Origin: Knoellia sp. Soil729 | GTDB lineage: Bacteria; Actinomycetota; Actinomycetes; Actinomycetales; Dermatophilaceae | Reading direction: 5' to 3' | NCBI RefSeq assembly: GCF_001427985.1 | Contig: NZ_LMSA01000001.1 | Span: forward strand, 883,164-947,163 | DNA: 64,000 nt | Shown: positions 3,685-59,876 of the stretch, one piece after another | How positions within the stretch are numbered: the stretch's first letter is position 1 | Layout: each line of letters opens with the position of its first letter | Notes under the pieces: generated by a model | Database searches by the model: none | Told to the model about the DNA's origin: nothing | Seen by the model: the letters and a program-made list of their open reading frames with translations, nothing else | Translations under genes and position numbers: made by a program

Positions 3685-4911
3685 ATGCGACTTCGTATGC
3701 CGTCCGGCCGGGTTGGCCGTACCGGCCCCGCGGACCTGCCCCGACTCAGCGTGCCCGCACCTGCATCGGAGCTCCCACCCGCCGCCGGCGCCCAGGGCAT
3801 CGACCCGGACCCGACGCACCAGCCGGCTGCCTGGCAGGTCCCCATGGGCGTGCGCACGGCCAGCGAGTGGTCGTGGCGGTTGCTCATCGTGGCAGCCGCC
3901 GTGCTGGGCGCGCTCTGGCTCATCACCTACTTCTCCGAGGTGACGGTGCCCCTCATCGTGGCCCTCCTCCTGGCGGCCCTGCTCATGCCGGTGACCCGCG
4001 CTCTCTCCCGAGCCCTCCCACGGGGGGCTGCCGCCGGCCTCACGGTCCTCGGCACGCTTGCCATCATCGGCGGAGCGCTGAGCTTCGTGGGCTCTCAGTT
4101 CTCGTCGCAGTTCAACGACATCAGCGACCAGGTCGGCCAGGGAATCGTCGAGATCCGCAGCTGGTTCCGCACGAGCTTCGGCGTCACCGACACCCAGGTC
4201 GACGACTGGATCGAGAAGGGCCGCGAACAGCTGAGCTCCGGCGGAGGAAGCCTGGGCGAGACCGCCGCGCAGGCCGGACTCACCGTGACCCACGTCCTTG
4301 CGGGATTCTTCATCGCGATGTTCGCGCTCTTCTTCTTCCTCTACGACGGTGAGCGCATCTGGTCCTGGGCGGTTCGGCTCTTCCCGCGCGACGCCCGCGT
4401 CCGGGTGCACTCGTCGGGGGTCATCGCATGGGGCCAGCTGTCGGCCTTCACCCGCGCGACGATCGTGGTCGCCGCGGTGGACGCCCTCGGAATCGGCATC
4501 GTCGCCGCCGTCCTCGGCGTGCCGTTCGCCTCCGGGGTCGCCGTCCTCGTCTTCTTCGGCGCGTTCGTGCCGGTCATCGGCGCGGCCATCTCGGGTGCGG
4601 TGCCGGTCCTGCTCGCCCTGGTGGCCCTGGGCCCCGTCCAGGCGCTCATCATGCTCGGTGGAGTCATCGCCGTGCAGCAGCTCGAGTCCCACGTCCTGCA
4701 GCCGTTCCTGCTGGGCCGGGCCGTGCGCGTGCACCCCCTGGCCGTCATCCTCGGCATCGCCGCAGGCGTGGTCGCCGCAGGCATCCTTGGCGCCCTGATC
4801 GCCGTGCCGCTCGTCGCCGTGCTCAACGCCGTCGGTCACCACCTCCTCGACAACCGGGCCCTGCCTGCCGGTCTGGAGCACGAGCTCGAGGAGAGCGGCG
4901 AGGCCGGTTAG
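3685..4911 (+). CDS. AI-2E family (PerM-like) membrane transporter
   Basis: A 408-aa integral membrane protein. A 55-residue proline-rich N-terminus is followed by about eight hydrophobic segments, with the usual long soluble loop between the second pair (SQFNDISDQVGQGIVEIRSW) and the family signatures ALFFFLYDGERIW, GAFVPVIGAAISG and LESHVLQPFLLGRAVRVHPL. Family members are annotated as AI-2 exporters or permeases, but the substrate varies and cannot be assigned here. It starts 72 bases after tRNA-Ala and ends at a strong bidirectional terminator facing glpR/sepX. Confidence 0.85.
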   Translation: MRLRMPSGRVGRTGPADLPRLSVPAPASELPPAAGAQGIDPDPTHQPAAWQVPMGVRTASEWSWRLLIVAAAVLGALWLITYFSEVTVPLIVALLLAALLMPVTRALSRALPRGAAAGLTVLGTLAIIGGALSFVGSQFSSQFNDISDQVGQGIVEIRSWFRTSFGVTDTQVDDWIEKGREQLSSGGGSLGETAAQAGLTVTHVLAGFFIAMFALFFFLYDGERIWSWAVRLFPRDARVRVHSSGVIAWGQLSAFTRATIVVAAVDALGIGIVAAVLGVPFASGVAVLVFFGAFVPVIGAAISGAVPVLLALVALGPVQALIMLGGVIAVQQLESHVLQPFLLGRAVRVHPLAVILGIAAGVVAAGILGALIAVPLVAVLNAVGHHLLDNRALPAGLEHELEESGEAG

Positions 4912-4930
4912 TCCGCCAGCCCGGACACGA

Positions 4931-4964
4931 CGAACGCCCCGCGAGGTCTCTCGCGGGGCGTTCG
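4931..4964. terminator. Bidirectional terminator between convergent genes
   Basis: A perfect 14-bp stem, CGAACGCCCCGCGA with its complement, encloses the loop GGTCTC. It lies between the AI-2E gene (ends 4911) and the gene ending at 4978 on the other strand. Confidence 0.8.
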
Positions 4965-4977
4965 CCGTGTGGGGCGT

Positions 4978-5988
4978 TCAGAGTCCGGCGATGCGGCGTT
5001 CCGGAACGTCCTCGTATGCCGGGTGCTCGGCTTGTGCTGTCGGCTGGGGCCGGGGCGCCGGCGCCGGGCGCTCGGCCGCGCGGGCCTTCATGGTGTAGGT
5101 CGGGCGCGGCACCGGGCGGGGGTCCCAGGTGAGCGGGATGTCGTCCTCGTCGAGCTCGGGCAGTGCGACCTCGTGCTCGGCCACGACCGGAGCCGGGTCG
5201 AGCGGGTGCTCTGCCACGCGCTCCTCGCCGAGCGGGGTGCTGGTGCGGCTCTCGGTGTGGGCCGAGACGTCGTAGGGGGCGACCTGCTCGGTCGCAGCCT
5301 CAGCGTCGACGGTGGCGGTGACGGCGATGTCGTCCAGGCCCACCGGCTCGCTCGCGGCGGTGGGGACCGATGCCGACTGGGCAGAGGGGCGAGCAGCGAA
5401 GGTGGGAGCCGGGGCCCCGGTGCGCGCGGCGGCGCGACGTGCCCGGCCACGGGCGGCCCGACGCGCCCTGGCCTCGGCCTGGATGCCGGCGCGCAGCCAG
5501 AAGAAGCCGACTCCGGCCATCACGAACGGGACCACGAACGACCACCACACCAGCACGCTCAGGGCGGAGAGAGCGCCGAAGGCGATCGTCCCCAGCAGCC
5601 CGACGAGCAGAACCGTCCCGCGGGTGGCGCGGCTGGGGTGCATACCCGCCGGCGCGGCGACGGCAGCCGTGGGTGCGGCCCTCTCGGCGCTCGCGGGCAC
5701 CTCGACCCTGGGCGCGGGCGCCGCCACGTGGGCCGCCGCGCGCTTGACGGTCACCTGCGGTCGCATGGCGCGAGCCGGGCTCAGGGCGGAGGTGCGAGGT
5801 GCCTGTCCGCCGGAGTCGACGGTCAGCAGCGGGGCGCGCCGCTCGAGGACCCGCATCGTCTGGGAAAAGGCGTCGACGGACCGGATCGTGGCGAGGTGCT
5901 CGCGCCGACGGACCCAGTACTGGACGAAATAAGCAGCCCAGATCCCGATGATGACAAGGAAGATGAGGCTGCTCGGCTGCACGAGCAC
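4978..5988 (-). CDS. GlpR/SepX-like divisome membrane protein
   Basis: A 336-aa protein with an N-terminal membrane helix (LIFLVIIGIWAAYFVQYWVRRRE), an Ala/Pro-rich linker, two further hydrophobic helices near residues 121-165 and a long acidic C-terminal tail containing DEDDIPLTWDPRPVPRPTYTMK. This architecture and the position at the end of the moeA/glp-rimJ run match the membrane receptor of the gephyrin-like protein Glp in corynebacteria (GlpR) and SepX in Streptomyces, both of which act at division sites. Its role here is inferred from family and synteny. A GTG at 5988 starts the frame; no clear ribosome binding site is seen. Confidence 0.7.
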   Translation of the reverse strand: MLVQPSSLIFLVIIGIWAAYFVQYWVRRREHLATIRSVDAFSQTMRVLERRAPLLTVDSGGQAPRTSALSPARAMRPQVTVKRAAAHVAAPAPRVEVPASAERAAPTAAVAAPAGMHPSRATRGTVLLVGLLGTIAFGALSALSVLVWWSFVVPFVMAGVGFFWLRAGIQAEARARRAARGRARRAAARTGAPAPTFAARPSAQSASVPTAASEPVGLDDIAVTATVDAEAATEQVAPYDVSAHTESRTSTPLGEERVAEHPLDPAPVVAEHEVALPELDEDDIPLTWDPRPVPRPTYTMKARAAERPAPAPRPQPTAQAEHPAYEDVPERRIAGL

Positions 5989-7162: not shown

Positions 7163-7659
7163 GGCTCGACCCAGTCGCCGGATCGACCGCCCGACTTGGC
7201 CGTGACGCGGACGTCGGTGATGCGGGCGTGCTTGTCGACGGCCTTGACCATGTCGATGAGCGCGAGGGCCGCGACGCTCACGGCGGTGAGCGCCTCCATC
7301 TCGATGCCCGTGCGGTCGGCGGTGCGGACGGTCGCCGCGATGTCCACCCCGTCGTCGGCCACGTCGAGGTCGACACTGGCCGCGTGGACGGCCACCGGGT
7401 GGGCCAGCGGGATGAGCTCCGGGGTGCGCTTCACCGCCTGTATGCCGGCCAGCCGGGCGACCGCGAGCGCGTCACCCTTGGGGACGGTCCCGTCCCGCAG
7501 GGCCGCGACCGCCGCCGACGAGAGCAGGACCCGGCCCCGGGCGCTGGCCTCACGCGCCGTGACCGCCTTGGCGGACACGTCAACCATGTGGGCCGTGCCG
7601 TCGGCTCGCACATGGGTCAGACCGCTGCGGGTCACGCGGCTGGTGTCATCGGTGGCCAC
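7159..7659 (-). CDS. moaC: Cyclic pyranopterin monophosphate synthase MoaC
   Basis: A 166-aa protein that converts the cyclic GTP intermediate made by MoaA into cyclic pyranopterin monophosphate, the first pathway intermediate of the molybdenum cofactor. Family signatures are KGDALAVARLAGIQAVKRTPE, LIPLAHPV, GIEMEALTAVSVAALALIDM and ITDVRVTAKSGGRSGDW. The start is the GTG at 7659, which lies inside the last 14 bases of moeA; a longer frame upstream lacks MoaC similarity. No moaA, moaD or moaE is visible in the window. Confidence 0.93.
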   Translation of the reverse strand: MATDDTSRVTRSGLTHVRADGTAHMVDVSAKAVTAREASARGRVLLSSAAVAALRDGTVPKGDALAVARLAGIQAVKRTPELIPLAHPVAVHAASVDLDVADDGVDIAATVRTADRTGIEMEALTAVSVAALALIDMVKAVDKHARITDVRVTAKSGGRSGDWVEP

Positions 7660-8869
7660 GGGATGAATCCTCCCCCACCAGCGGCAGGAGATGGACGCCG
7701 TCACCGGGCCGAATCTCGGTGGTCTCGGCACCGACGACCGCGAGGTGCGTCGCATCGGCGAGCGCTCCCAGCATGTGCGAGCCCTGCCCACCGGAGGGCC
7801 GCGCCCCGTCGGCGTCCACGACGACTCGGGTGAACTCGACCTTGCCCGGGATCGATGACCACCCCTGCGACGCAACGCTGTCCGTCGTCACCGGCTCGGG
7901 GTCGAGCCCGGCCAGGGCCCGCAACACCGGCAGGACGAAGACGTGGAAGGACACGAACGAGCTCACGGGGTTGCCGGGCAGGGTGATGATCGGTGTGCGG
8001 CGGTCACCCACGACGCCGCCGCCCTGGGGCATCCCGGGACGCATGGCGACCTTGACGAAGTCGACGGTGCCCGTGGCCGACAGGACCTCCTTGACGGTGT
8101 CGTAGGCGCCCATGGACACCCCGCCGGTGGTGAGGATGAGGTCCGGCTCGCCGGGCACCTGCTCCAGGAGCGACCGCCAGGCGTCGGCATCGTCGGCGAG
8201 GTGGCCCACGCCGACGAGCTCGGCGCCGGCGGCCCGGATGAGGGCGGCGAGCATCGATCCGTTGGAGTCGACGATCTGCCCGTGCTCGAGCGGGAGCCCG
8301 ACCGGCACCAGCTCGTCTCCAGTGGACAGCACATGGACACGGGGCAGGGGCAGGACGAGGACGTCCGGGACGTTGGCGGCGGCGATGAGGGCCAGCCTCC
8401 CGGGCGTCACCCGCACCCCGGCGCGCAGCACCACGTCGCCGGCGCGCACGTCCTCGCCGCGTCGACGCAGGTGTCGACCGGCCTCGGCCGCCAACGTCAG
8501 CGCCACCCGCGACACTCCCCCGTCGCTGGCCTCGACCGGCACGACCGCATCGGCCCCCTCGGGCATCGGGGCACCGGTCATGATCCGCATCGACGCCCCG
8601 GCCCGCAGCACATGGGCCCGCGTGTCCCCCGCAGCGATGTCCCCGTCGACCTCCAGGACCGCCGGCGACGCTGGCGTCGCGCCGACGACGTCGGCCGAGC
8701 GGACGGCATACCCGTCCATGGCACTGTTGTCGAAGCCCGGAAGGTCGACGGCAGCAACGACATCCGCGGCCAGCACCCGGCCCAGCGACTCCGTCAGCCC
8801 CACCGTCACGGGCGGCAGCGCCGAGACCAGGCCGACCAGCGCTGCCCGGTGCTCCTCGACCGTCCTCAC
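7646..8869 (-). CDS. moeA: Gephyrin-like molybdopterin molybdotransferase (MoeA/Glp)
   Basis: A 407-aa MoeA protein: the N-terminal part has DLPGFDNSAMDGYAVRSADV, the catalytic MPT-binding domain has VHVLSTGDELV, ILTTGGVSMGAYD and IITLPGNPVSSFVSF, and a C-terminal beta domain follows. MoeA inserts molybdate into adenylated molybdopterin. In corynebacteria the homologue at this locus (Glp) also binds FtsZ and a membrane receptor to organise division; the receptor-like gene here is 1.7 kb downstream in the same run. The GTG start overlaps the UGPase stop (GTGA). Whether this protein is a cofactor enzyme, a divisome protein or both cannot be told from sequence. Confidence 0.9.
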   Translation of the reverse strand: MRTVEEHRAALVGLVSALPPVTVGLTESLGRVLAADVVAAVDLPGFDNSAMDGYAVRSADVVGATPASPAVLEVDGDIAAGDTRAHVLRAGASMRIMTGAPMPEGADAVVPVEASDGGVSRVALTLAAEAGRHLRRRGEDVRAGDVVLRAGVRVTPGRLALIAAANVPDVLVLPLPRVHVLSTGDELVPVGLPLEHGQIVDSNGSMLAALIRAAGAELVGVGHLADDADAWRSLLEQVPGEPDLILTTGGVSMGAYDTVKEVLSATGTVDFVKVAMRPGMPQGGGVVGDRRTPIITLPGNPVSSFVSFHVFVLPVLRALAGLDPEPVTTDSVASQGWSSIPGKVEFTRVVVDADGARPSGGQGSHMLGALADATHLAVVGAETTEIRPGDGVHLLPLVGEDSSRGHR

Positions 8870-10251: not shown

Positions 10252-10257
10252 GTCGTC

Positions 10258-10323: not shown

Positions 10324-10884
10324 GTGACCCGGGACCTCGCCAGCAACGCCAAGGCTGCGCTGCGGCCGTCGCTGCTCGCGGCCCGCCGTGAGACCGCGTC
10401 CTCCCGCGACCGCGACGCGGACGACCGAGCGCTGGCCACCCAGGTCCTCTCCGTCGTGACGCGGCTCGGCCTGCGGGAGGGCGACACCGTCGCGGCCTAC
10501 GAGGCGCTGCGCACCGAGCCACCCACGTCGGCGACCATCGACACCCTGGTGGCACACGGCATACGGGTCATCGTCCCGATCACGTTGCCGGACAACGACC
10601 TTGACTGGTGCGATGCACGTGACACCCACCGTATGCCGCTGGGTCCCGATACGATCTCGTCCGCCGGTCTCGTCCTCACCCCTGGGCTGGCGGTGGACCT
10701 GGTCGGCACGCGGTTGGGCCGCGGTGGCGGCAGCTATGACCGGGCGCTGCTGCGCCGCTCCCCTGACGCGCGCGTGCTCGTCGTCCTCCACCCGGGCGAG
10801 ATCCACCCGGTCCGGCTGCCGGCGGACGAGCTCGACCAGCCCGTCGACGGCGCGCTGACCGTCGCCGGGGTGACAGAGTTCTGA
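10324..10884 (+). CDS. 5-formyltetrahydrofolate cyclo-ligase
   Basis: A 186-aa enzyme that converts 5-formyl-THF to 5,10-methenyl-THF with ATP, salvaging folate in the cytosol. Family features are the basic N-terminus (LRPSLLAARRETASSRDRDAD), the DLVGTRLGRGGGSYDRAL loop (folate and ATP site) and the LHPGEIHPVRLPADELDQPVDG region. The GTG at 10324 is preferred because a -10-like CACACT lies six bases upstream. The gene diverges from UGPase and ends 12 bases before the convergent penicillin-acylase gene. Confidence 0.9.
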   Translation: MTRDLASNAKAALRPSLLAARRETASSRDRDADDRALATQVLSVVTRLGLREGDTVAAYEALRTEPPTSATIDTLVAHGIRVIVPITLPDNDLDWCDARDTHRMPLGPDTISSAGLVLTPGLAVDLVGTRLGRGGGSYDRALLRRSPDARVLVVLHPGEIHPVRLPADELDQPVDGALTVAGVTEF

Positions 10885-10895: not shown

Positions 10896-13568
10896 TCAGG
10901 AGGCCTTCTCGGGGACCAGGGACAGCTCGTCCTCGGCGCTCTCACGGACGGCCTTCTCGGTGAAGGGCCAGGGGTCCTGGCGGCCCTTGACCCAGTCCTC
11001 GGTCTGGTCGTCATAGTGGCTGCTGAACGCGTGGCCGCTCGCGCCGGTCTGGTTGATCCACGTCGACCGGTCGAGGTTGCCGAGGTCGACGACCATGCGC
11101 ATGGAGGGCGCCCAGTTGGTCTCGTAGCCGACGCTCGCGTCCCATCCGTTGGCGTTGACGATCGAGGACCCACCCGGCATCCGGTGGCCTCCACGGTTGA
11201 AGACCGCCCGGACGTAGCCCGGGACGCTGTCGCCCCCGAGGACCTGGTGGGTGAGCTCGAGGGTGTGCAGGGCACCCCAACGCCAGTCGTCGGGGTCCTT
11301 GCCGAGTCGCTTGGTCAGCTCCAGGCGGGCCTCGACCTGGGCCTGGCGCAGGATCTCGTCACGCCCCTCGGTGACCCCGGCGGTCTGGCGGTTGTCCCAC
11401 CAGGCGCTCTTGGGGTTGTCCAGGAGCCTGCCGACGGCCGCGAAGTAGCGGCTGCCGCCGTTGGCCTGGAGGTCCTCGGGGACCTCGTCGTCGAAGAGGA
11501 GCCGCAGGAGGTTGGCCCACACGGCGTTGTAGTAGGCCGCGGCCGCACCCGCACGGGAGTCGTCGGCCGGTGTCGTGTGGTCCCAGTCGCGCAGCAGGTC
11601 CTGCGCCTCGCGGGTGAACTCCGCCTCGGTCTCGGAGTCCTCGGCACCTCGCAGGGGCACCGCGAGCAGCGCCTTGACGAGGACCGGCGCGAACTCGTTG
11701 CGGGTGTCCAGCTGGATGCTGGCCATCTTCTGGGCGGTGACCTTGCCGCCGTCCTTGGTCGCCTGGGTGATGAGGTCACGGATGCGCTGTGCGCGGTAGC
11801 CGTAGTCCCACTGCGTGGTGAGGAACGGCGTGGCGCTCGCGGTGACGGCCTGGTTGGCCGTGACGAGGAAGCCCTCCGGCGGGTCGAGCGAGGTGGGCAT
11901 CGACTCGAAGGGCACGTCACCCTTCCAGTCGTAGGCCTCGTCCCAGCCCGGCGCCGGCCAGTAGCCCGGGGGCGACCCGGGGAAGGCCGACGTCCGGACC
12001 GGCACCTGGCCCGGCGCCTGGTAGCCGATGTGCCCGTCGACGTCGGCATAGATGAGGTTCTGGGCCGGCACGGCGAAGGACCTCGCAGCCTCCCGGAACT
12101 CCGGGAAGTTCTGGGCCGCGTTGAGCTTGAGGATGGCGTCTGCGGTCTTGGTCGCGCGCAGTCCGGTCCACGCCATCGACACCGCGTAGTCCTGACCGAT
12201 GACGGCGGGGGCGTCGGACTTCGGCACGGGTGAGCGCTCCCCGGCGTCACCGAAGTCCTCGAGCACGTCGGACATGAGCGGACCGTGCCTCGTCGAGCGC
12301 ACCGTCATGCTCACGTCCGCGGCACCGGCCACCTTGATGACCTCGCGGCGGGTGGTGAGGGGCTCGAACGTGGTGCCGCGCAGCACGGTGTCCCCGTCGA
12401 CCTGCTCGAGGTAGAAGTCGCTGACGTCCGGCCCCAGGTTGGTGAAGCCCCACGAGATCCGGTCGTTGTGGCCGATGACCACGCCCGGCACGCCGGAGAA
12501 CGAGAACCCGGCGACCTCGAGGGGGCACTGCTCGGACTTCTGGCGGCAGTGCAGCCCGATCTGGTACCAGATGCCCGGCTGGCCCGGGCTGAGGTGCGGG
12601 TCGTTGGCGAGCAGCGGCTTGCCGGTCGCGGACTTGTCCGGGCCGACGACCCACGAGTTCGAGCCGATGCCGTCGCCGCGACCGAGCAGCTGGGGGACGG
12701 CATCGAGCGCACGTCCCACCGCGGCATACGCCTGCTGTGCGGAGGGTGTGTCGGAGGCCGCCACGATGCGGGCGACCGAGGAGGACGGCGCCGCGGTGGC
12801 CGCACGGGAGCGGGCGAGCGCCGGTGGCACGGCCGACGACTGGCCCCCGGCTGCGGTGGGCTGCCAGTCCTGCGCGGACAGGATCGGCTCGTTGGCGAGG
12901 TCGTAGGGCGGATACAGCTCGGCGATCTGGGTCGGGGTGACGCGGGTGGAGAGGCGTGCGCGCGCCAGCTCGTCGGAGTAGTCGCCGCGCAGGTCCCACG
13001 CCATCGCCTTGAGCCAGGCGATGGAGTCGGCCGGTGTCCAGTCCTCGATGCTGTAGTCCTTCACCCGGGTCCCCAGGACGACGTACTCGAGGGAGGCCTT
13101 GGACGGCGACCGTCCACGCAGGTAGGCGTTGACGCCGTCGGCGTAGGCCTGCAGGTAGGTGCGCGTGGACGGCTCAAGGGTGGGCAGCTCGGCCTCGGCG
13201 ATGCGTCGCCAGCCCATCGTGCGGATGACCTTGTCGGTCTCCAGCCCCGCGTCGCCCACGAGCTCTGACAGGCGCCCGGAGGTGATGTGTCGCCGCAGGT
13301 CCATCTCGAAGAAGCGGTCCTGCGCGTGGACGAACCCCTGCGCCTTGGCGATGTCGGCGACGCTGTCGCCGTAGATCTGCGGGATGCCGCGGTCGTCACG
13401 CAGGACGTCCACCGTGCCGCTCAGGCCCGGGATGGTGATCTGGCCCTCGGTCTGGGGGAAGGAGCGCCGGACGAGGGAGACGCCGACCATCGAGACGACG
13501 AGAGCGGCGACGGCGAGGACGCCGACGACGGCCAACGTCACCCGTCTGGCGACACGGTGGGAAGTCAT
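10896..13568 (-). CDS. Penicillin acylase family Ntn hydrolase
   Basis: An 890-aa exported precursor. An N-terminal membrane helix or signal (residues 10-33) is followed by an alpha-chain region, a spacer rich in Ala/Ser, and the predicted autocleavage point Gly302-Ser303 in GDGIGSNSWVVGP; Ser303 would become the N-terminal nucleophile of the beta chain. Other family features are KPLLANDPHLS, PGVVIGHNDRISWGFTN and a C-terminal HRMPGGSS with NYAP-like WAPSMRMVVDL. The family hydrolyses amide bonds of beta-lactams, N-acyl-homoserine lactones or related acyl compounds; the substrate is not predictable. TAGTCT six bases before the ATG marks a leaderless promoter. Confidence 0.88.
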   Translation of the reverse strand: MTSHRVARRVTLAVVGVLAVAALVVSMVGVSLVRRSFPQTEGQITIPGLSGTVDVLRDDRGIPQIYGDSVADIAKAQGFVHAQDRFFEMDLRRHITSGRLSELVGDAGLETDKVIRTMGWRRIAEAELPTLEPSTRTYLQAYADGVNAYLRGRSPSKASLEYVVLGTRVKDYSIEDWTPADSIAWLKAMAWDLRGDYSDELARARLSTRVTPTQIAELYPPYDLANEPILSAQDWQPTAAGGQSSAVPPALARSRAATAAPSSSVARIVAASDTPSAQQAYAAVGRALDAVPQLLGRGDGIGSNSWVVGPDKSATGKPLLANDPHLSPGQPGIWYQIGLHCRQKSEQCPLEVAGFSFSGVPGVVIGHNDRISWGFTNLGPDVSDFYLEQVDGDTVLRGTTFEPLTTRREVIKVAGAADVSMTVRSTRHGPLMSDVLEDFGDAGERSPVPKSDAPAVIGQDYAVSMAWTGLRATKTADAILKLNAAQNFPEFREAARSFAVPAQNLIYADVDGHIGYQAPGQVPVRTSAFPGSPPGYWPAPGWDEAYDWKGDVPFESMPTSLDPPEGFLVTANQAVTASATPFLTTQWDYGYRAQRIRDLITQATKDGGKVTAQKMASIQLDTRNEFAPVLVKALLAVPLRGAEDSETEAEFTREAQDLLRDWDHTTPADDSRAGAAAAYYNAVWANLLRLLFDDEVPEDLQANGGSRYFAAVGRLLDNPKSAWWDNRQTAGVTEGRDEILRQAQVEARLELTKRLGKDPDDWRWGALHTLELTHQVLGGDSVPGYVRAVFNRGGHRMPGGSSIVNANGWDASVGYETNWAPSMRMVVDLGNLDRSTWINQTGASGHAFSSHYDDQTEDWVKGRQDPWPFTEKAVRESAEDELSLVPEKAS

Positions 13569-15192: not shown

Positions 15193-15312
15193 CTCGTGGC
15201 TGCTGAGCGGTCCGGCGGCCGGACACGGAGGGTGGGCGGACGGCATACCGGAGCACTCCCGTGCGTTCCGTATCCTAGGAACCGCTCATCCCGCAGTGCC
15301 CAGGAGGAAACA

Positions 15313-40558: not shown

Positions 40559-40622
40559 CTATTCCGGTGATCACTGCGTGATCGACCGAACGGCGCCCGT
40601 ATGCCGTGGTGCGAGTCCTCGC

Positions 40623-49501: not shown

Positions 49502-50203
49502 ATGAGCGAGAACGACAAGGACCCGCAGCCGGGGGAGTTCAGGGACCCGACGGCGAGCCCGGAGTGGACCGCGCCCCGGGCTCCTCAGGGCGAGCCCACG
49601 GAGCAGATCCCCCAGGCCTCCGGGACGTCCGGTGGGTCCGAGGTGCCTGACGTGCCGCCTGCTCCGGCGGGTCCTGCCGCCCCCAGCTACGACGCCCCCT
49701 ACCAGGCGCCGCGCGGCGAGAGCGATCCCTACTCCGGTTCCAGCACGCAACCCACGAACCCGTATGCCGCGACGCCCCCTCCGCCCCCCGCGGACCCCTA
49801 CGGCGTACCCCAGGCCGCCCACGACCCCTACGCCGCGACGGGTGGGGCGGCAGCGCAGGGCGGCTACCCGGCATACAACGCCCCCGGTCAGTGGCAGGCC
49901 CCGCCCGCGGGCTACGGCGCACCCCCGGAGCAGAACACGAGCGCGCTCGTCCTGACGATCGTCTCGGGCATCACCACGCTGACCTGCTGCCTCCCCGGCA
50001 TCGTCCCCCTCATCCTGGGCATCATGGCCCTCACCCGGAACGCCACCGACCCGGTGGGCTCCCGGCGCCTGGCGAAGTGGGGCTGGATCGCCTTCGGCAT
50101 CGGCATCGCGCTCGCGGTCATCGTCATCGGTGCGGTCATCGTCTTCGGCCTGGCCGGCGCCTTCGACGGCGGCTACAGCTCCGACCCCGACTACACCTAC
50201 TGA
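49502..50203 (+). CDS. DUF4190 domain membrane protein
   Basis: A 233-aa protein. About 140 residues are a disordered Pro/Ala/Tyr/Gln-rich tail (NPYAATPPPPPADPYG, YNAPGQWQAPPAGYG), followed by two membrane helices in a DUF4190 domain (SALVLTIVSGITTLTCCLPGIVPLILGIMALTRN, RLAKWGWIAFGIGIALAVIVIGAVIVFGLAG). Function unknown; such proteins are common in actinobacteria. It lies seven bases before XPB and may be co-transcribed with it. Confidence 0.83.
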   Translation: MSENDKDPQPGEFRDPTASPEWTAPRAPQGEPTEQIPQASGTSGGSEVPDVPPAPAGPAAPSYDAPYQAPRGESDPYSGSSTQPTNPYAATPPPPPADPYGVPQAAHDPYAATGGAAAQGGYPAYNAPGQWQAPPAGYGAPPEQNTSALVLTIVSGITTLTCCLPGIVPLILGIMALTRNATDPVGSRRLAKWGWIAFGIGIALAVIVIGAVIVFGLAGAFDGGYSSDPDYTY

Positions 50204-50210: not shown

Positions 50211-51848
50211 GTGACTGACGGCGCACTGATCGTCCAGAGCGACAAGACGCTCCTGCTCGAGGTCGACCACCCACGGTCGGCCGAGGCCCGGCGCGCGATC
50301 GCACCGTTCGCCGAGCTGGAGCGCGCGCCGGAGCACATCCACACCTATCGCATCACTCCTTTGGGCCTGTGGAACGCCCGCGCCGCGGGGCACGACGCCG
50401 AGCAGGTCATCGACGCCTTGGTGACGCACAGCCGCTACCCCGTGCCCCACGCGCTGCTCATCGACGTCGCCGACACGATGGCCCGCTACGGCCGGCTCAC
50501 CCTCACCAAGGACGGCGATCTTCTCGTCCTGCGCACGACCGACCGTGCCGTGCTCACCGAGGTGCTGCGGCACAAGCGCATCAAGCCCCTCGTCGGCGAG
50601 CGCCTCGACGAGGACACCGTCGTCGTGCACCCCAGCGAGCGCGGCCACCTCAAGCAGGAGCTGCTCAAGGTGGGCTGGCCTGCCGAGGACGAGGCCGGCT
50701 ACGTCGACGGCGAGGCACACACGATCACCTTGGACCAGAGCGACGGCTGGAGCCTGCGCCCCTACCAGGAGCAGGCGGTCGACGGCTTCTGGGACGGAGG
50801 CTCTGGGGTCGTCGTGCTCCCGTGCGGTGCAGGCAAGACGCTCGTCGGCGCCGGCGCGATGGCGAAGGCCTCGGCCACGACCCTCATCCTCGTGACCAAC
50901 ACCGTCTCGGCGCGGCAGTGGAAGGACGAGCTCATCCGCCGCACGAGCCTCACCGAGGACGAGATCGGCGAGTACTCCGGTGCCCGCAAGGAGATCCGCC
51001 CGGTCACCATCGCGACCTACCAGGTGCTCACCACCCGTCGCAAGGGCGTCTACACGCACCTCGACCTCCTCGACGCGCGCGACTGGGGCCTCGTCGTCTA
51101 TGACGAGGTCCACCTGCTTCCCGCACCGATCTTCCGGATGACGGCCGACCTCCAGGCCCGGCGCCGGCTCGGCCTCACCGCGACCCTCGTGCGCGAGGAC
51201 GGCCTCGAGTCCGACGTCTTCTCGCTCATCGGCCCGAAGCGGTTCGACGCACCGTGGAAGGACATCGAGGCGCAGGGCTACATCGCCCCTGCGGACTGCG
51301 TCGAGGTGCGGGTCACGCTCCCGGACGGACAACGCATGGCGTATGCCGTCGCGGAGCCCGAGGACCGCTACCGCCTCGCCTCCTGCTCGGACTCCAAGCT
51401 GCCCGTCGTCGAGAAGCTCGTCGCTCGCCACCACGGCGAGCCGACGCTGGTCATCGGCCAGTACCTCGACCAGCTCGACGAGCTCGCCACCCGACTGCAG
51501 GCGGACGTCATCACCGGCGAGACGTCGGTGACCGAGCGGCAGCGCCTCTACGACGCCTTCCGCACCGGCGAGATCAGCCTGCTCGTCGTCTCCAAGGTCG
51601 CGAACTTCTCGATCGACCTGCCCGAGGCGAGCGTCGCCATCCAGGTGTCGGGCACGTTCGGGTCGCGTCAGGAGGAGGCCCAGCGATTGGGCCGGGTCCT
51701 GCGCCCCAAGGGGGATGGCCGGACCGCGCACTTCTACACCGTCGTCGCGCGCGACACCGTCGACGCCGACTTCGCCGCCCACCGCCAGCGCTTCCTGGCC
51801 GAGCAGGGCTACGCCTACCGCATCGTCGACGCCGACGACCTCGACTAG
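50211..51848 (+). CDS. DNA repair helicase XPB
   Basis: A 545-aa superfamily 2 3'-5' DNA helicase. N-terminal damage-recognition-like region (LIVQSDKTLLLEVDHPRSAEARRAIAPFAELERAPEH), then LRPYQEQAVDGFW, Walker A LPCGAGKT (203-210), VYDEVHLLPAPIFRM, LTATLVREDG, VIGQYLDQLDELA, VVSKVANFSIDLPEA and RQEEAQRLGRVLRPKGDGRTAHFYTVV. In eukaryotes XPB is part of TFIIH; in actinobacteria its role is thought to be in nucleotide excision repair. GAGGGA precedes the GTG at 50211. Confidence 0.94.
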   Translation: MTDGALIVQSDKTLLLEVDHPRSAEARRAIAPFAELERAPEHIHTYRITPLGLWNARAAGHDAEQVIDALVTHSRYPVPHALLIDVADTMARYGRLTLTKDGDLLVLRTTDRAVLTEVLRHKRIKPLVGERLDEDTVVVHPSERGHLKQELLKVGWPAEDEAGYVDGEAHTITLDQSDGWSLRPYQEQAVDGFWDGGSGVVVLPCGAGKTLVGAGAMAKASATTLILVTNTVSARQWKDELIRRTSLTEDEIGEYSGARKEIRPVTIATYQVLTTRRKGVYTHLDLLDARDWGLVVYDEVHLLPAPIFRMTADLQARRRLGLTATLVREDGLESDVFSLIGPKRFDAPWKDIEAQGYIAPADCVEVRVTLPDGQRMAYAVAEPEDRYRLASCSDSKLPVVEKLVARHHGEPTLVIGQYLDQLDELATRLQADVITGETSVTERQRLYDAFRTGEISLLVVSKVANFSIDLPEASVAIQVSGTFGSRQEEAQRLGRVLRPKGDGRTAHFYTVVARDTVDADFAAHRQRFLAEQGYAYRIVDADDLD

Positions 51849-52094
51849 ACCGCGAAACCGGCAACCACACGAAGGCGACGAGCGCGCCGGACCAGCCCAC
51901 CACCGGAAGCGCGGGACCTCCCGTTCGCCGCTGGCTGGGCCTGGCGGCGGGTCCCACGTTCTGCGTGGGCGCGGCGAGCGCGCTCAGCGCGCGAGCCGCG
52001 GATGGGACTGCGGCGAACGAGATGTCGCGCGCGACCCACCCGAAGGTGGGAGGACGGCATACGCCGCAGTGCAGCGTGTGTGAGAGTGGCGCCC

Positions 52095-53485: not shown

Positions 53486-54942
53486 TGGCCAGCCCCACCG
53501 CGCCCCAGGCGGTCGTGCGCCGGCTCGAGGCGATGCCCCTGCGCGTGCGGCTGGTCGCGATCGTCCTGCTCGTCCTCACCGCCGCGCTGCTCTTCTCCAA
53601 CCTCGCCACCGCCTACCTCATGCAGCGGGACCTGCTCGGCCGCGTGGACAGTGAGCTGCGCAGCGTGGCGACGCCCGTCGCGAGCCAGGCCCTCGACGAG
53701 CTCCGCAAGCAGGACGTCGAGGCGACGCCGACCAACTACGCCTTCGTCCTGTTCCCCGTCAACGGGGAGGAGACGACCGTCAACCCCACCGGTGAGAGGC
53801 AGCACCCCGCCGTGCCCCGCCTCGGCCTGCAGGACCTGCGGGTGCGGACGGGCCGCCCGTTCACCGTGAAGTCCGTCGATGGCGAGATGTCGTGGCGCTT
53901 CATCGCGGGCACGGTCAACGACGACAGGGCGACGTTCGCGGTCGGTGTCCCGCTGAGGTCGGTCAAGCAGACGGTGACGCGACTGCTCGTCACCACGGGT
54001 GTGCTCAGCGCGCTCGTCCTCGCCGGGTCGGCACTGCTCGGCTGGTATGCCGTCCGGCGGGCTTTCCGTCCCCTCGCCCAGATCGAGGACACCGCCGCTG
54101 CCATCGCCGGGGGTGACCTGACCAGGCGCATCCCCGTGCGACCGGCCGAGGACGAGGTGACGTCACTCTCCCGCAGCCTCAACGCGATGCTCGCCCAGAT
54201 CGAGACGTCCTTCGCCGTCCGCGAGGCCTCCGAGGTGCGCATGCGGCAGTTCGTCGCGGACGCGAGCCACGAGCTGCGGACGCCCCTGGCCACGGTGCGC
54301 GGCTACGCCGAGCTGCACCGGCAGGGCGCGATCTCCAGCCCGGAGGACACCCGAGCCGCCATGGAGCGCATCGAGTCGGAGTCGGGTCGCATGAGCGGTC
54401 TGGTCGAGGGCCTGCTCACCCTCGCCCGGCTCGACGAGGAGCCGACGACCTCGATGGGCGAGGTCGACCTCACGGTCCTCGCCGCCGACGCCACGGCGGA
54501 CGCGCGGGTGCGCGCCGGCGGCCGTCGCATCACCCTCACCGGCCTGGGCGGCCCGCTCGACGCGACGACCGTCTGGGGATCCGAGGCGCGGCTCCGGCAG
54601 GTGGTGACGAACCTCGTCGCCAACGCCGTCCGGCACACGCCGCAGGGAACACCGATCGAGCTCGCCGTCGGCGTCGACGGCGGCGACGGCGTCATCGAGG
54701 TGCGCGACCACGGCGACGGAATCCCTTCTGGCACAGCGCATCGAGTTTTCGAACGCTTCTACCGCGCCGACCCCTCGCGTGGGCGCAGCACGGGCGGCAA
54801 CGGACTGGGACTCGCGATCGTCGCCGCCATCGTGGCCGCGCACCACGGCCGGGTCGGCGTTCAGGAGACGCCGGGAGGCGGCGCGACCTTCGTCGTCCGC
54901 ATCCCCACAGCGGCCTCACAGGTGAGGTCCAGCGGGTCTTGA
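53485..54942 (+). CDS. Membrane sensor histidine kinase (MprB-like)
   Basis: A 485-aa kinase. Two membrane helices (about 22-45 and 168-190) flank a sensor domain of about 120 residues outside the cell. A HAMP linker (RAFRPLAQIEDTAAAIAGGDLTRRIP), the phospho-acceptor His262 in DASHELRTPLATVRGY, N box LVANAVRHTP, G boxes DHGDGIP and GNGLGLAI follow. The ATG overlaps the regulator stop (TGATG). The pair likely responds to envelope or misfolding stress, with the HtrA protease downstream as target or modulator. Confidence 0.94.
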   Translation: MASPTAPQAVVRRLEAMPLRVRLVAIVLLVLTAALLFSNLATAYLMQRDLLGRVDSELRSVATPVASQALDELRKQDVEATPTNYAFVLFPVNGEETTVNPTGERQHPAVPRLGLQDLRVRTGRPFTVKSVDGEMSWRFIAGTVNDDRATFAVGVPLRSVKQTVTRLLVTTGVLSALVLAGSALLGWYAVRRAFRPLAQIEDTAAAIAGGDLTRRIPVRPAEDEVTSLSRSLNAMLAQIETSFAVREASEVRMRQFVADASHELRTPLATVRGYAELHRQGAISSPEDTRAAMERIESESGRMSGLVEGLLTLARLDEEPTTSMGEVDLTVLAADATADARVRAGGRRITLTGLGGPLDATTVWGSEARLRQVVTNLVANAVRHTPQGTPIELAVGVDGGDGVIEVRDHGDGIPSGTAHRVFERFYRADPSRGRSTGGNGLGLAIVAAIVAAHHGRVGVQETPGGGATFVVRIPTAASQVRSSGS

Positions 54943-56525: not shown

Positions 56526-58355
56526 ATGAACGATCAGCTGCAGGACGTGCGTCGGCTCGAGTCCGAGTTCGCCGACGCGATGAACCGCATGTATGCCGTG
56601 GGCAACGGGCTCGCCCGGATGCGCACCGTTCTCGAGCTGGACACGGTCGTGCCGGCTCCCACTCCCGCTGCGACGCCCGGCTCCACCACTCCCACACCAG
56701 CACCCGCGACGGCCACCGCACCTGCTGCCTCGGCGCCCACCACTCGCCAGCGTCCAGCCGCCCCCGCCGTCCCGTCCTGGTGGCAACGCGAGGGGGCCGT
56801 CACCCGTGTGCTGGCCCTCGCCGGGGCCGTCGTCACGCTCGTCGGCGTGGCCATGCTGCTCGCCCTCGCGATGCAGCAGGGCTGGTTCGTGCCCGAGCTG
56901 CGCGTCGCCCTCGGCGTCCTGCTCGCCGCGGGGCTCGTGGCCGCCGGTCACGTCGTGCGGGCTCGTGAGGCCTCCCACGGGCGCTCCAGTGCCGCTCCCG
57001 TCGCGATCGCAGCCACCGGGTATGCCGCGGCCTACCTTGACGTCGTGGCGGTCACCACCGTCTATGGCTGGGTCCCGCGCGTGGGAGGCCCGGCGATCGC
57101 AGGGGCTGTCGCCGTCACGGGACTGCTCCTGGCACGTCGCTGGAACAGCCAGCTCCTCGGTGTCCTCACCGTCGTCGGCGCCACCCTCCTGGCCCCCGTC
57201 GTCGCACAGGGCGTCGGGGACGCGGTCTCGCTGTTCGTCGTCGTGCTCTCCGGCGCTGCCCTGCTGGCTCGCGGCGACCGCGGCTGGCCCGTGCTCGCCA
57301 TGTCGCGCACCGTCCCCGCGGCCGGGCTCGTCCTCCTCGGCATCGCTGACGCCGATGGTCAGGGGTCACCCTCCACCGTGGCGATCGTTGCCGCCGGTGC
57401 CCTCACCGTGCTCGCCCTCGTCGGCGCCGTCTCGGCCGGCCGGCACTCCCGCACCGACCTGGTCGGCAGCGCCACCGTGGCTGCCTCGGCCATCTCGCTC
57501 CTCGTCGCCCTCGGCGTCCACGGCCAGACCCTGCAGACGACCGGCTTCGCGCTCGTGGCGGTCGCGTTCGCGGTGACGCTGGCCACCACGTCGCGCTCCC
57601 CCATCGGACCCGTACCCACTCCCCTCGCGACCACCCTCGGCTCCCTCTCGGGGGTCGCAGCGCTCCTCGCCGTCCTGAGCGGAGCACCCGAACGCTGGGT
57701 CGTCACCGGCATCCTCCTCACGGCCCTGGGCTATGCCGCTGCCGCCATCACGACACGCTCCCGCGTGACGCTCTGGGTCGCCGCCGGGACGGCGGTCGTC
57801 GCCTCCGTCGCCTACCTCACCCACCCGGCCGCCTACGTCGAGCTGTGGGAGGCCCGGAACCACGACGCGACCGCGGCCCTGCTCGACAGCCTGCTCGCGG
57901 GCGGGGTTGCCGCCCTGGGCGCCTGGGGCGTGGACGTGGTCCGCGGGATCCCCGTCCGGGTCCGCCGGCTCACGCGCATCGCCGCGCTCGTCGCCGGCCT
58001 GACCACCTCTGCGGTGGCGGTCATCTCCGTGGGGCTGCTCGCCGGCGAGGCGCTCGAGGCCACGTCTGCCGGCTTCCTCGCGGGGCACGCGCTCGCCACC
58101 GTGCTCTGGATGCTCACCTCGGCGTGGCTGCTCCTGCGCGGGCTGGAGGCGGAGTCGCGCCGGGCGCTTTCGCTGCGGCTGGGCCTCGGCCTCGCGGCGG
58201 TCAGCGTCGCCAAGCTGTTCCTCTTCGACCTCGCCACGCTCGACGGGTTGTGGCGGGTCGCCGCGTTCATCGTGACGGGACTGCTCCTCCTGGCCAGCGG
58301 GACGGCATACGCGAAGGCCCTGGACCGGACCCGAGCGCCGGGCGCAGCCGCCTGA
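56526..58355 (+). CDS. DUF2339 multi-pass membrane protein
   Basis: A 609-aa protein. A short cytosolic helix (MNDQLQDVRRLESEFADAMNRM), a Pro/Ala/Thr-rich linker, then about sixteen hydrophobic helices, with AATGYAAAYLDVVAVTTVYG and the ending LGLAAVSVAKLFLFDLATLDGLWRVAAFIVTGLLLLASG-type region (conserved KLFLFDL) of DUF2339. Function unknown; envelope-linked roles have been suggested for the family. The ATG at 56526 is close behind the terminator at 56477-56507. Confidence 0.82.
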   Translation: MNDQLQDVRRLESEFADAMNRMYAVGNGLARMRTVLELDTVVPAPTPAATPGSTTPTPAPATATAPAASAPTTRQRPAAPAVPSWWQREGAVTRVLALAGAVVTLVGVAMLLALAMQQGWFVPELRVALGVLLAAGLVAAGHVVRAREASHGRSSAAPVAIAATGYAAAYLDVVAVTTVYGWVPRVGGPAIAGAVAVTGLLLARRWNSQLLGVLTVVGATLLAPVVAQGVGDAVSLFVVVLSGAALLARGDRGWPVLAMSRTVPAAGLVLLGIADADGQGSPSTVAIVAAGALTVLALVGAVSAGRHSRTDLVGSATVAASAISLLVALGVHGQTLQTTGFALVAVAFAVTLATTSRSPIGPVPTPLATTLGSLSGVAALLAVLSGAPERWVVTGILLTALGYAAAAITTRSRVTLWVAAGTAVVASVAYLTHPAAYVELWEARNHDATAALLDSLLAGGVAALGAWGVDVVRGIPVRVRRLTRIAALVAGLTTSAVAVISVGLLAGEALEATSAGFLAGHALATVLWMLTSAWLLLRGLEAESRRALSLRLGLGLAAVSVAKLFLFDLATLDGLWRVAAFIVTGLLLLASGTAYAKALDRTRAPGAAA

Positions 58356-58367: not shown

Positions 58368-59027
58368 ATGCTGCGGGACACATTGTGGGACGAGGCCGTG
58401 CGTGCCGTCAGGGGTGACGTGCACGGCCTCGTCTCCACCCGTGTGGACCTCGTGGAGCGCTGGTCGCAGCACCACCGCGGCTACCACGACCTGCGGCACC
58501 TCGACGAGGTCCTTGGGGCCCTCACGGAGCTGCGTGACACCGCACTCGACACGGAGGAGGACTGGGCCAGCGTGGTCCTCGCGGCCTGGTTCCACGATGC
58601 GGTCTACGACGTCGCGACGCCGGGTGCCGGGGACCCCGAGAACGAGCGCCGCAGTGCCGAGCTGGCGCGAGCCACGCTGTGGGACAACGGAGTGGGCGCC
58701 GCGACGATCGAGTCCGTCGTATCCCTCGTGGAGGCGTCACAGACCCACGAGGTGTCCCAGACCCACGGACCGCAGGCAGTCTTCCACGACGCGGACCTCT
58801 GGATCCTGGGTGCACCGACGGCCCGTTTCGACGAGTACTGCGACGCCGTCCGGCGGGAGTATGCCGCCGTGCCCGACGACGCCTACGCGCAGGGCCGTTC
58901 GGCGATCCTCACGCCTTTCCTCGCGCGCAGCCATGTCTACCGCACGGACCACGCGCGAGGGCACTGGGAGGTCGCTGCCCGCGACAACCTCGCACGTGAG
59001 CTGGCCCGGCTGTCAGTGCGCCCCTGA
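58368..59027 (+). CDS. HD-superfamily metal-dependent phosphohydrolase-like protein
   Basis: A 219-aa protein with the HD-type pattern RGYHDLRHLDEVL, VLAAWFHDAVYD, NERRSAELARATL and FHDADLWILGA. It belongs to the predicted phosphohydrolase group often annotated as N-methyl-D-aspartate receptor NMDAR2C-like; substrate unknown. A short internal duplication (EASQTHEVSQTHG) is present. CAGACT lies six bases before the ATG. It overlaps the convergent gene by 15 bases. Confidence 0.83.
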   Translation: MLRDTLWDEAVRAVRGDVHGLVSTRVDLVERWSQHHRGYHDLRHLDEVLGALTELRDTALDTEEDWASVVLAAWFHDAVYDVATPGAGDPENERRSAELARATLWDNGVGAATIESVVSLVEASQTHEVSQTHGPQAVFHDADLWILGAPTARFDEYCDAVRREYAAVPDDAYAQGRSAILTPFLARSHVYRTDHARGHWEVAARDNLARELARLSVRP

Positions 59028-59750
59028 CCAGAGGCCTGGGCGCACGAGGGGCCACCAGTGGCGCTCCCCCAGCTCGGCCTCCTGCCGCTCCGGCGGGCAC
59101 CAGGTGCCGGTTGCCGGCCCAGAACCCCCGACGGACAGCGCGAAGACCGCGAAGCACGCCGTCGGGGCCGGCCACGGATAGCCCCGGTCCGGCGCCGGCA
59201 CGACGTTGCGGACGTAGCCGACCAGGGTGGCATCCCCGAGCCCGATGCCGAGGTCGGCGCCGAGGGACTCGAGCGCCTGCCGGGCAGACTCACCCTCTGC
59301 CACCGACCGTGTCGGCAGATCGTGACCGGCGCCGTCGGGGCGACTCACGACGAGCATGCCCCTGCCGCTGCTGATGACGGCCCGCACCACGACCGTGCGC
59401 GGAGGTGCGTCCACCTGCCGCGACGCGATGACGTCGGCGCGGCTGCCCGGTGGCAGCCACACGGGGTTTGTCGTGGAGTGCACGACCCGCTCCCGCGTGC
59501 GCTTGGGGATACGAAGTCCGCTGTCCCGCAACGCCAAGAGCAGCTCGCGTCCCTGCACCGGAGTCGCCCCGGCCGCGACGACGGCTGCATGGCGTTCCTC
59601 CGGAATGTCGTAGTGGTCACCCTCGAACGCTCGCCGCGAGATGCCCGCGCGCTCTGCGAACGCATGGAGCTCGGCATACGAGGTCGTGCTCACGAGGTGC
59701 GACCACAACCGTCCGTGGGCCGGCCACGCAGGGGGGTCGATGAGGAGCAC
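59013..59750 (-). CDS. DUF4031-NUDIX fusion protein
   Basis: A 245-aa protein. The N-terminal 85 residues (LLIDPPAWPAHGRLWSHLVSTTSYAELHAFAERAGISRRAFEGDHYDIPEE) match DUF4031. The C-terminal part (RTVVVRAVISSGRGMLVVSRPDG, TRSVAEGESARQALESLGADLGIGLG) resembles a NUDIX hydrolase, but the box GX5EX7REUXEEXGU is eroded: only SVAEGESARQALESLGADLG remains. Function unknown. TACGAT, part of a CGGCATAC-type motif copy, lies six bases before the GTG start. Confidence 0.72.
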   Translation of the reverse strand: MLLIDPPAWPAHGRLWSHLVSTTSYAELHAFAERAGISRRAFEGDHYDIPEERHAAVVAAGATPVQGRELLLALRDSGLRIPKRTRERVVHSTTNPVWLPPGSRADVIASRQVDAPPRTVVVRAVISSGRGMLVVSRPDGAGHDLPTRSVAEGESARQALESLGADLGIGLGDATLVGYVRNVVPAPDRGYPWPAPTACFAVFALSVGGSGPATGTWCPPERQEAELGERHWWPLVRPGLWSGAH

Positions 59751-59756
59751 CCGGGA

Positions 59757-59762
59757 ATCGTA
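59757..59762 (-). promoter_or_regulatory. -10 element of the DUF4031-NUDIX gene (leaderless)
   Basis: TACGAT on the minus strand, six bases before the GTG at 59750; it overlaps the octamer GTATGCCG at 59760. Confidence 0.5.
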
Positions 59763-59876
59763 TGCCGCGCCCGTGCACCGAGCCTGTGGACAACTCCACG
59801 GCGAGTTTCACGATTCTCCCTACCGTCAGGGCAGTGGTCGCGCCACCGGGTGCGACGCCGACAGAGGGGACCAGAC

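What the first reader, a model, noticed from the sequence alone, without database searches (positions are those of the whole stretch)
3694..59767. Octamer GTATGCCG/CGGCATAC is about twenty-fold overrepresented
By eye I count about 44 copies: 23 as GTATGCCG and 21 as CGGCATAC on the plus strand, spread evenly from 3.7 to 59.8 kb. At about 70% GC, roughly 2 are expected. They occur in coding regions in several frames (often as the rare codon pairs TAT-GCC and GCA-TAC, while Tyr is otherwise TAC) and between genes, so selection seems to act on DNA and not on protein. None lies in the decayed island at 1-3.6 kb. Density (one per 1.5 kb), conserved 8 bases and lack of strand bias resemble DNA uptake sequences more than KOPS- or Chi-like sites, which are strand-skewed. 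A methylation or nucleoid-protein site is also possible. This is an inference.
Basis: partly seen in the sequence, partly recalled or inferred. Interest (0 to 1): 0.85.

Follow-up and report, generated by a model that had tools for sequence, protein, structure and literature searches.

The report
Strand-spaced self-DNA tag in actinobacteria
One family of actinobacteria carries the same eight-letter DNA word thousands of times per genome, spaced out separately on each strand and replaced by a different word in some relatives; it most resembles the 'own DNA' tags that two families of Gram-negative bacteria use to choose which DNA to take up.

Summary
In genes it is about tenfold above synonymous-codon shuffles; its single-base variants are not enriched. 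Enrichment is confined to one of the 20 families sampled in the order; 107 of 186 genomes of that family hold at least 380 copies. Several relatives without it carry another word at comparable density: CGAAGGGG in two genera, one probably Janibacter; CGTAGACC in one species; GTACGGCG/GTACGCCG in others. This is the pattern of uptake-sequence 'dialects'. Density falls in low-GC genes. Unexpected: same-strand copies avoid each other within about 1 kb (26 seen, 71 expected) while opposite-strand copies do not (85 seen, 78 expected), repeated in pooled loci of 11 other genomes and not seen for eight other words. Each strand seems to be read separately. The genome has comEA, comEC and tad loci resembling those of the transformable Micrococcus luteus. 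Best reading: DNA-uptake (self-recognition) sequences, probably directional. Uptake itself is untested, and competence genes separate carriers from non-carriers only weakly.

The parts
3695..3702 (+). GTATGCCG copy (edge of a called gene)
5014..5021 (+). GTATGCCG copy, in gene
7440..7447 (+). GTATGCCG copy, in gene
8704..8711 (-). GTATGCCG copy, in gene
10557..10564 (-). GTATGCCG copy, in gene
10631..10638 (+). GTATGCCG copy, in gene
12722..12729 (-). GTATGCCG copy, in gene
15126..15133 (+). GTATGCCG copy, in gene
15241..15248 (-). GTATGCCG copy, outside called genes
17520..17527 (+). GTATGCCG copy, outside called genes
19400..19407 (-). GTATGCCG copy, in gene
21333..21340 (+). GTATGCCG copy, in gene
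22439..22446 (-). GTATGCCG copy, in gene
23053..23060 (+). GTATGCCG copy, outside called genes
23441..23448 (-). GTATGCCG copy, in gene
24829..24836 (-). GTATGCCG copy, in gene
25236..25243 (+). GTATGCCG copy, outside called genes
27715..27722 (-). GTATGCCG copy, outside called genes
29414..29421 (+). GTATGCCG copy, outside called genes
32434..32441 (+). GTATGCCG copy, in gene
33162..33169 (-). GTATGCCG copy, in gene
34098..34105 (+). GTATGCCG copy, in gene
35200..35207 (-). GTATGCCG copy, in gene
35640..35647 (-). GTATGCCG copy, left arm of an intergenic hairpin
35660..35667 (+). GTATGCCG copy, right arm of the same hairpin (region folds at -36.8 kcal/mol as RNA, 24 bases after a called gene)
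38708..38715 (-). GTATGCCG copy, outside called genes
40500..40507 (-). GTATGCCG copy, outside called genes
40599..40606 (+). GTATGCCG copy, outside called genes
42864..42871 (-). GTATGCCG copy, in gene
43641..43648 (+). GTATGCCG copy, outside called genes
45328..45335 (+). GTATGCCG copy, in gene
45585..45592 (-). GTATGCCG copy, in gene
46943..46950 (-). GTATGCCG copy, in gene
49762..49769 (+). GTATGCCG copy, in gene
49869..49876 (-). GTATGCCG copy, in gene
51341..51348 (+). GTATGCCG copy, in gene
52055..52062 (-). GTATGCCG copy, outside called genes
54045..54052 (+). GTATGCCG copy, in gene
56591..56598 (+). GTATGCCG copy, in gene
57020..57027 (+). GTATGCCG copy, in gene
58303..58310 (-). GTATGCCG copy, in gene
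58859..58866 (+). GTATGCCG copy, in gene
59672..59679 (-). GTATGCCG copy, in gene
59760..59767 (+). GTATGCCG copy, outside called genes

Best explanation
GTATGCCG is the core of a DNA uptake (self-recognition) sequence of this actinobacterial family. DNA released by kin is bound at the cell surface through the word, pulled in by a Tad/Flp pilus and ComEA/ComEC, and recombined, so sites that improve uptake spread and are conserved (molecular drive, with or without selection for kin DNA). Because same-orientation copies look redundant within about 1 kb and opposite ones do not, I infer that the word is read in one direction: a bound copy promotes entry of one strand, or one flank. Receptor changes create new dialects. 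Shown: overrepresentation, sharpness, strand-separated spacing, dialects, distribution, presence of the genes. Inferred: binding, uptake, direction, receptor.
For: Overrepresentation against codon and Markov controls without enriched variants. No strand skew, and strand counts more equal than chance in 107 enriched genomes (mean z2 0.60, p 3e-4, relatedness not corrected; control word 1.08). One family only: 21 of its 34 genomes and 107 of 186, none of 362 genomes of 19 other families. Other words at comparable density in relatives: CGAAGGGG in 5 of 57 genomes, all five tested of genera g5 and g8 (11 copies in 17.7 kb of Janibacter indicus); CGTAGACC in G400, whose four tested congeners carry GTATGCCG; GTACGGCG in G462, whose two congeners carry GTATGCCG, and less strongly in G405, G466, G396, G397; GTACGCCG in G396, G397, G405, G466, G136, G462. 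Same-strand avoidance within 1 kb: 26 against 71 and 26 against 60, in the window alone 3 against 14, in G066 (CGAAGGGG) 40 against 60, in G462 (CGTACGGCG) 0 against 5; eight other words in G000 show none. Density 0.09 per kb (1 copy in 10.8 kb) in genes under 64% GC, 0.65 above 74%. comEC in 34 of 34, comEA beside it in G000 and in the displayed relatives where a gene was called; tad loci whose Flp, TadE, TadF and TadE2 N-termini resemble by eye those of M. luteus, where tad genes are required for transformation (PMC4322843, abstract and passages). The tad-1-type TadA is kept in 41 of 43 genomes with a known word and 11 of 17 without (p 0.005, relatedness not corrected).
Against: No transformation is known to me in these species; (at least four of six terms) listed no paper. 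ComEC and the tad-2-type TadA occur equally in genomes without a known word. Two carriers, G257 and G066, show no tad-1-type TadA. Even spacing of uptake sequences has been reported, but strand-separated avoidance is not mentioned in the passages I read, and one paper reports uptake independent of orientation (PMC1939737, passages). Close inverted pairs are not clearly in excess in G000 (7 against 4.7 within 60 bases; 9 against 4.0 in the 11 others). For G400 the avoidance is weak (8 against 12.3 +/- 3.5), and G136 shows clustering instead (76 against 40). No receptor was identified.
Confidence: 0.6

Rival explanations
1. A Chi-like site: a helicase-nuclease such as AdnAB meets the word in one orientation while processing a broken end and switches to recombination. 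One-way reading gives strand-separated spacing.
For: Explains same-strand redundancy directly. Known Chi words also differ between species (recalled). CGAAGGGG is G-rich.
Against: No strand skew and alternating neighbours, whereas known Chi sites are skewed along replication (recalled). Complete change of word between congeners would be unusual.
Confidence: 0.13
2. A strand-marking methylation site: an orphan methyltransferase modifies one strand of the word and the mark guides repair within about 1 kb, so new copies are made and kept where no mark on that strand is near. This would adapt the model proposed for HIP1 in cyanobacteria (PMC4390886, passages).
For: That model has a reach of about 1,000 bases and concerns strand choice in repair, which fits the avoidance distance; a non-palindromic word would mark one strand only. 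Words could change with the enzyme.
Against: No methylation data. HIP words are palindromic. Actinobacteria mostly lack MutS/MutL (recalled), so the repair step would be different. Distribution of methyltransferases was not tested.
Confidence: 0.12
3. A binding site for a nucleoid, condensation or segregation protein distributed along the chromosome.
For: Density, presence in genes and between genes, longer consensus in intergenic copies with T about one helical turn downstream.
Against: Such sites would not obviously need strand-separated spacing; KOPS-like sites need skew, which is absent. Turnover of positions between relatives and change of word between congeners are unusual for it.
Confidence: 0.07
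4. A by-product of codon-pair or amino-acid usage (Tyr-Ala, Ala-Tyr) or of mutation bias.
For: Most coding copies are Tyr-Ala or Ala-Tyr (158 of 189).
Against: Codon shuffles give a tenth of the count; intergenic density is 2.4 times higher; near background in 13 of 34 family genomes and in 362 of 362 genomes of other families; strand avoidance.
Confidence: 0.01

Closest known systems
DNA uptake sequences (DUS) of Neisseriaceae, with ComP and type IV pili
   Same: Short non-palindromic word in thousands of copies, no orientation bias, in genes and between genes, several dialects in one family with five family genomes lacking an obvious one, inverted pairs able to form stem-loops (PMC3630211, abstract and passages; PMC1939737, passages).
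   Different: Actinobacterial family; the three pilus-type ATPase loci seen in G000 are Tad/Flp-like and no type IVa pilus or ComP was noticed there (no dedicated search); copies avoid each other only on the same strand; words can differ almost wholly (GTATGCCG, CGAAGGGG), whereas all DUS dialects share CTG. The string ATGCCGT common to GTATGCCGT and the first letters of AT-DUS (recalled) lacks that CTG and is probably chance.
Uptake signal sequences (USS) of Pasteurellaceae
   Same: Core of 9 bases with extended flanks; average spacing about 1,000 bp; two types in the family (PMC7811141 and PMC12616744, passages).
   Different: Unrelated family and pili; no strand-resolved avoidance reported in the passages read.
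HIP1 of cyanobacteria
   Same: Octamer at high density with variant words in some relatives (PMC4390886, passages).
   Different: HIP1 is palindromic and linked to methyltransferases; this word is not palindromic.
Chi sites
   Same: Short asymmetric word, probably read in one direction.
   Different: No skew in the segments; no RecC in this genome.

Membership tests
DNA uptake sequence (DUS/USS) | Strongly overrepresented short asymmetric word genome-wide | tested here: met
DNA uptake sequence (DUS/USS) | No orientation bias along the chromosome | tested here: met
   25 segments, two of which overlap by 10 kb
DNA uptake sequence (DUS/USS) | Enriched between genes | tested here: met
   1.12 against 0.46 per kb, own gene caller
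DNA uptake sequence (DUS/USS) | Inverted pairs as hairpins at gene ends | tested here: inconclusive
   Strong hairpins exist but opposite pairs within 60 bases are 7 against 4.7 expected in G000 and 9 against 4.0 in 11 other genomes
DNA uptake sequence (DUS/USS) | Lineage-specific dialects | tested here: met
DNA uptake sequence (DUS/USS) | Natural competence machinery present | tested here: met
   the genes are also present in genomes without a known word, and two carriers show no tad-1-type TadA
DNA uptake sequence (DUS/USS) | The word increases uptake and transformation | not testable with these tools
   needs experiment
DNA uptake sequence (DUS/USS) | Dedicated receptor (a minor pilin such as ComP) | not tested
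   no candidate singled out
Chi site of RecBCD | RecC present to read it | tested here: not met
   PF04257 absent from G000
Chi site or KOPS | Skew along replication | tested here: not met
   origin and terminus were not mapped, but the segments show no skew
HIP1-like iterated palindrome | Palindromic word | tested here: not met
   GTATGCCG is not its own reverse complement
Methylation site | Base modification in the word | not testable with these tools
   no methylome data

The most novel reading that the evidence does not exclude
A species-coded address is written separately on each DNA strand every 3-4 kb and read in one direction by machinery not yet described: either orientation-specific DNA uptake in monoderm bacteria, with receptor-driven dialects that can change completely between species, or a wholly different strand-reading process such as strand marking for repair.
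Probability: 0.4. Interest if true: 0.93.

Novelty: new variant of a known kind. Interest (0 to 1): 0.82.

Why it matters
Uptake sequences are, in the papers I looked at, a matter of two Gram-negative families, and it is debated whether they are kin tags or by-products of a biased uptake machine. A third, unrelated case in Gram-positive actinobacteria with other pili, several dialects and a strand-resolved spacing rule would allow that question to be tested independently, offer more than a hundred genomes for finding the receptor by co-variation, and perhaps make hard-to-engineer actinobacteria transformable with tagged DNA.

Tried and rejected
Octamer ranking in single loci of 80 leuS neighbourhoods did not discriminate: the top word of 58 Streptomyces and other loci reached z 19.3 (cause not examined), so no conclusion on other families is drawn. 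GGACGTCC (G094, a palindrome, 14 against 2.2 in 78 kb) was not followed; CAGTACTG (G333) was no longer among the top words with more sequence. CGTACGCC in G136 is high genome-wide as GTACGCCG, but its copies cluster, so a repeat family may be superposed. ComEC presence as a discriminator failed (34 of 34), a tad-2-type TadA too (65 of 65, in G453, G470 and G414 only partial). A Fisher test with rough counts was replaced. The strand-balance test left out six enriched genomes by oversight; one search adds them. Of the eight control words, one (ATGCCGTG) overlaps the motif. Paper searches on the topic; for the letters GTATGCCG gave 643 papers, of which 20 were listed and seen as titles and abstract beginnings, none on this topic.

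For the tad-1 comparison the 65 genomes were sorted by hand: 43 with a known word (32 with GTATGCCG, 11 with another), 17 without, 4 intermediate (G407, G409, G414, G422) and 1 not tested for its genus's word (G286) left out. Among the 17, G267 was tested for GTATGCCG only and judged by its congeners. Presence means a match of at least 60% identity, including matches broken by contig ends. Absent: G066, G257, G333, G410, G426, G452, G453, G472.
Full report
OBSERVATION. The window holds exactly 44 copies of GTATGCCG, 23 on plus and 21 on minus; dinucleotide shuffles give 0.81 on average and at most 3. The genome G000 (3.6 Mb, 8 contigs) holds 1055 + 1083, the word read backwards 38 + 51. In 464 kb (window and 20 stretches of 20 kb) the count is 252 against 11.2 expected by an order-3 Markov model, the highest z of all octamers. 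With an own simple gene caller (427 genes), 189 copies lie in genes; shuffling synonymous codons within genes gives 19.4 +/- 4.3. The 24 single-base variants together are at 269 against 307 expected, so there is no halo of decayed copies; GTACGCCG, one synonymous step away, is depleted (15 against 52). The shuffles inherit the TAT codons of the motif copies, which inflates the expectation for variants with TAT.

ANATOMY. Of 252 copies, 89 read as TAT-GCC on the coding strand, 69 as GCA-TAC, 31 lie in other frames, 60 outside called genes and 3 on edges; density is 1.12 per kb between genes and 0.46 in genes. Counting the first base of the word as 0, intergenic copies show a longer consensus, with T at +8 in 60%, G at +11 in 70%, C at +14 in 72% and T at +18 in 53%, about one helical turn beyond the core; copies in genes share the +8 and part of the +18 preference. 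Some opposite copies form strong hairpins, as at 35640/35660 in the window, but such pairs are not clearly in excess in this genome (7 against 4.7 within 60 bases; 9 against 4.0 in 11 other genomes).

STRAND-RESOLVED SPACING. The segments show no strand skew (chi2 11.7 with 24 degrees of freedom; 25 segments, two of which overlap by 10 kb). Without the overlapping segment, neighbouring copies alternate strands: 85 of 262 neighbours lie on the same strand against 124 +/- 7 for random places. Same-strand pairs closer than 1 kb number 26 against 71 expected; opposite-strand pairs are at the random level (85 against 78). In 30 pooled loci of 11 other carrier genomes the figures are 81 of 237 neighbours against 113 +/- 7, and 26 against 60 pairs. 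The first 100 forward copies on contig 1 have a coefficient of variation of gaps of 0.57, whereas 1000 random sets gave 0.98 on average and 0.73 at least. Eight other words in the same sequence, one of them overlapping the motif, show no such avoidance, two a marked opposite. In the window alone: 3 against 14.4 +/- 3.8. In agreement, forward and reverse totals in 107 enriched genomes are closer than binomial (mean squared z 0.60, p 3e-4, related genomes counted separately; control word 1.08, the latter adding six genomes missed in the former). The word therefore seems to act per strand, with a reach of about 1 to 1.5 kb.

DISTRIBUTION. In 396 genomes of the order, 21 of 34 genomes of family f1 are enriched; none of the other 362, from 19 families, exceeds 180 copies, against 625 to 3,277 in the 21. 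In 186 genomes of the family, 107 hold at least 380 copies and a few genera are intermediate.

DIALECTS. Carrier genera prefer different flanks, for example the nonamers that make up CGTATGCCGCTG in G213 (20 to 22 each, with 22 copies of the core) and GGTATGCC in G257. Enriched words were sought in relatives without GTATGCCG by codon shuffles and intergenic counts and then counted in whole genomes. CGAAGGGG: 1,553 to 3,180 copies in the five tested genomes of genera g5 and g8 and 84 to 386 in the other 52; Janibacter indicus has 11 in 17.7 kb and no GTATGCCG, so one of these genera is probably Janibacter. CGTAGACC: 1,183 in G400, 234 to 315 in its four tested congeners, which carry GTATGCCG instead, and at most 454 in the others of 57. 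GTACGGCG: 3,117 in G462, 193 and 429 in its congeners, which carry GTATGCCG; 1,251 to 1,550 in G396, G397, G405, G466; at most 579 in the other 38 of 43. GTACGCCG: 1,359 to 2,618 in G136, G396, G397, G405, G462, G466; 98 to 752 in the other 37 of 43. Strand avoidance within 1 kb recurs for CGAAGGGG in G066 (40 against 60 +/- 7) and CGTACGGCG in G462 (0 against 5.1 +/- 2.0), is weak for CGTAGACC in G400 (8 against 12.3 +/- 3.5) and reversed for CGTACGCC in G136 (76 against 40; clustered copies). Of the 65 genomes examined for tad genes, 17 have no known word.

FOREIGN DNA AND TURNOVER. Density rises with gene GC from 0.09 per kb below 64% (one copy in 10.8 kb) to 0.65 above 74%, although the word itself is poorer in GC than the genome (13 copies in 71 kb below 68% GC against 200 in 390 kb, p 4e-5); low-GC genes are likely acquired (inference). 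Between G000 and G350 (81% identical over 10.5 kb of the comEC region) 4 sites are shared, 2 are only in G000 and 4 only in G350; with the more distant G213 none of 6 is shared. Places turn over while density stays.

MACHINERY. ComEC is found in 34 of 34 family genomes tested, with comEA upstream in G000 and in the displayed relatives where a gene was called (part of that output was cut, and in G050 no gene was called there). G000 has three loci with a TadA-type ATPase. Two of them carry small pilins whose N-termini resemble Flp, TadE, TadF and TadE2 of Micrococcus luteus as printed in PMC6370729 (passages; comparison by eye). In M. luteus both tad clusters are needed for transformation, and the comEA/comEC locus is shown in the same figure of deletion mutants (PMC4322843, abstract and passages). 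The TadA of the tad-1-like locus is kept in 41 of 43 genomes with a known word and 11 of 17 without (p 0.005, related genomes counted separately); the exceptions G257 and G066 speak against a strict link. A tad-2-like TadA match is in 65 of 65, partial in three. Presence of genes thus allows uptake everywhere but does not predict the word.

RIVALS. RecC is absent from 15 of 21 GTATGCCG carriers, G000 among them, and present in 11 of 14 other genomes, so a RecBCD-read Chi is excluded here; AdnAB reading an unskewed Chi is not. The methylation-repair model for HIP1 (PMC4390886, passages) has the right reach and concerns strands, but nothing shows methylation. Codon usage is excluded.

JUDGEMENT. 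The set of features matches uptake sequences as described for Neisseriaceae and Pasteurellaceae (PMC3630211, PMC7811141, PMC1939737, PMC12616744, abstracts or passages) better than any other kind. Even spacing of those has been reported, but the strand-resolved avoidance is new to me and suggests directional reading, whereas known uptake is reported as independent of orientation. I found no report of such words in Actinobacteria in searches (listings only, apart from the papers named); most subscription papers and all bioRxiv preprints are not held, so priority is not certain. It works like an uptake sequence; membership is not claimed until uptake is measured.

Noticed in passing
window 30316-30470 (-): c-di-AMP (ydaO) riboswitch, 67 bits.
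   Followed up: no
window 1-3613: Sparse short genes and a fragment that reads by eye like the C-terminus of a tyrosine recombinase, beside a tRNA gene at 3541-3613 (-): looks like a decayed integrated element.
   Followed up: partly
35 family genomes: RecC is rarer in GTATGCCG carriers (6 of 21) than in other genomes of the family (11 of 14), p 0.006 without correction for relatedness; G400 has RecC and the word CGTAGACC, while its three congeners tested for RecC lack it and carry GTATGCCG.
   Followed up: partly
L028 (G000 contig 5, 1-20000): Low-GC stretch (65%) with genes that look by eye like transport and catabolic genes and only 3 copies of the word in 20 kb, about 12 expected.
   Followed up: partly
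G066 stretches, mainly L138: Runs of C outside genes (CCCCCCCC at 48 overlapping places outside called genes in 198 kb, 30 of them in L138, none in genes).
   Followed up: no
L232-L234, L251-L256 (G400): Intergenic repeat made of overlapping words such as CGTGAATCC and ATCCGCGCA (8 or 9 copies in 180 kb, none or one in genes).
   Followed up: no
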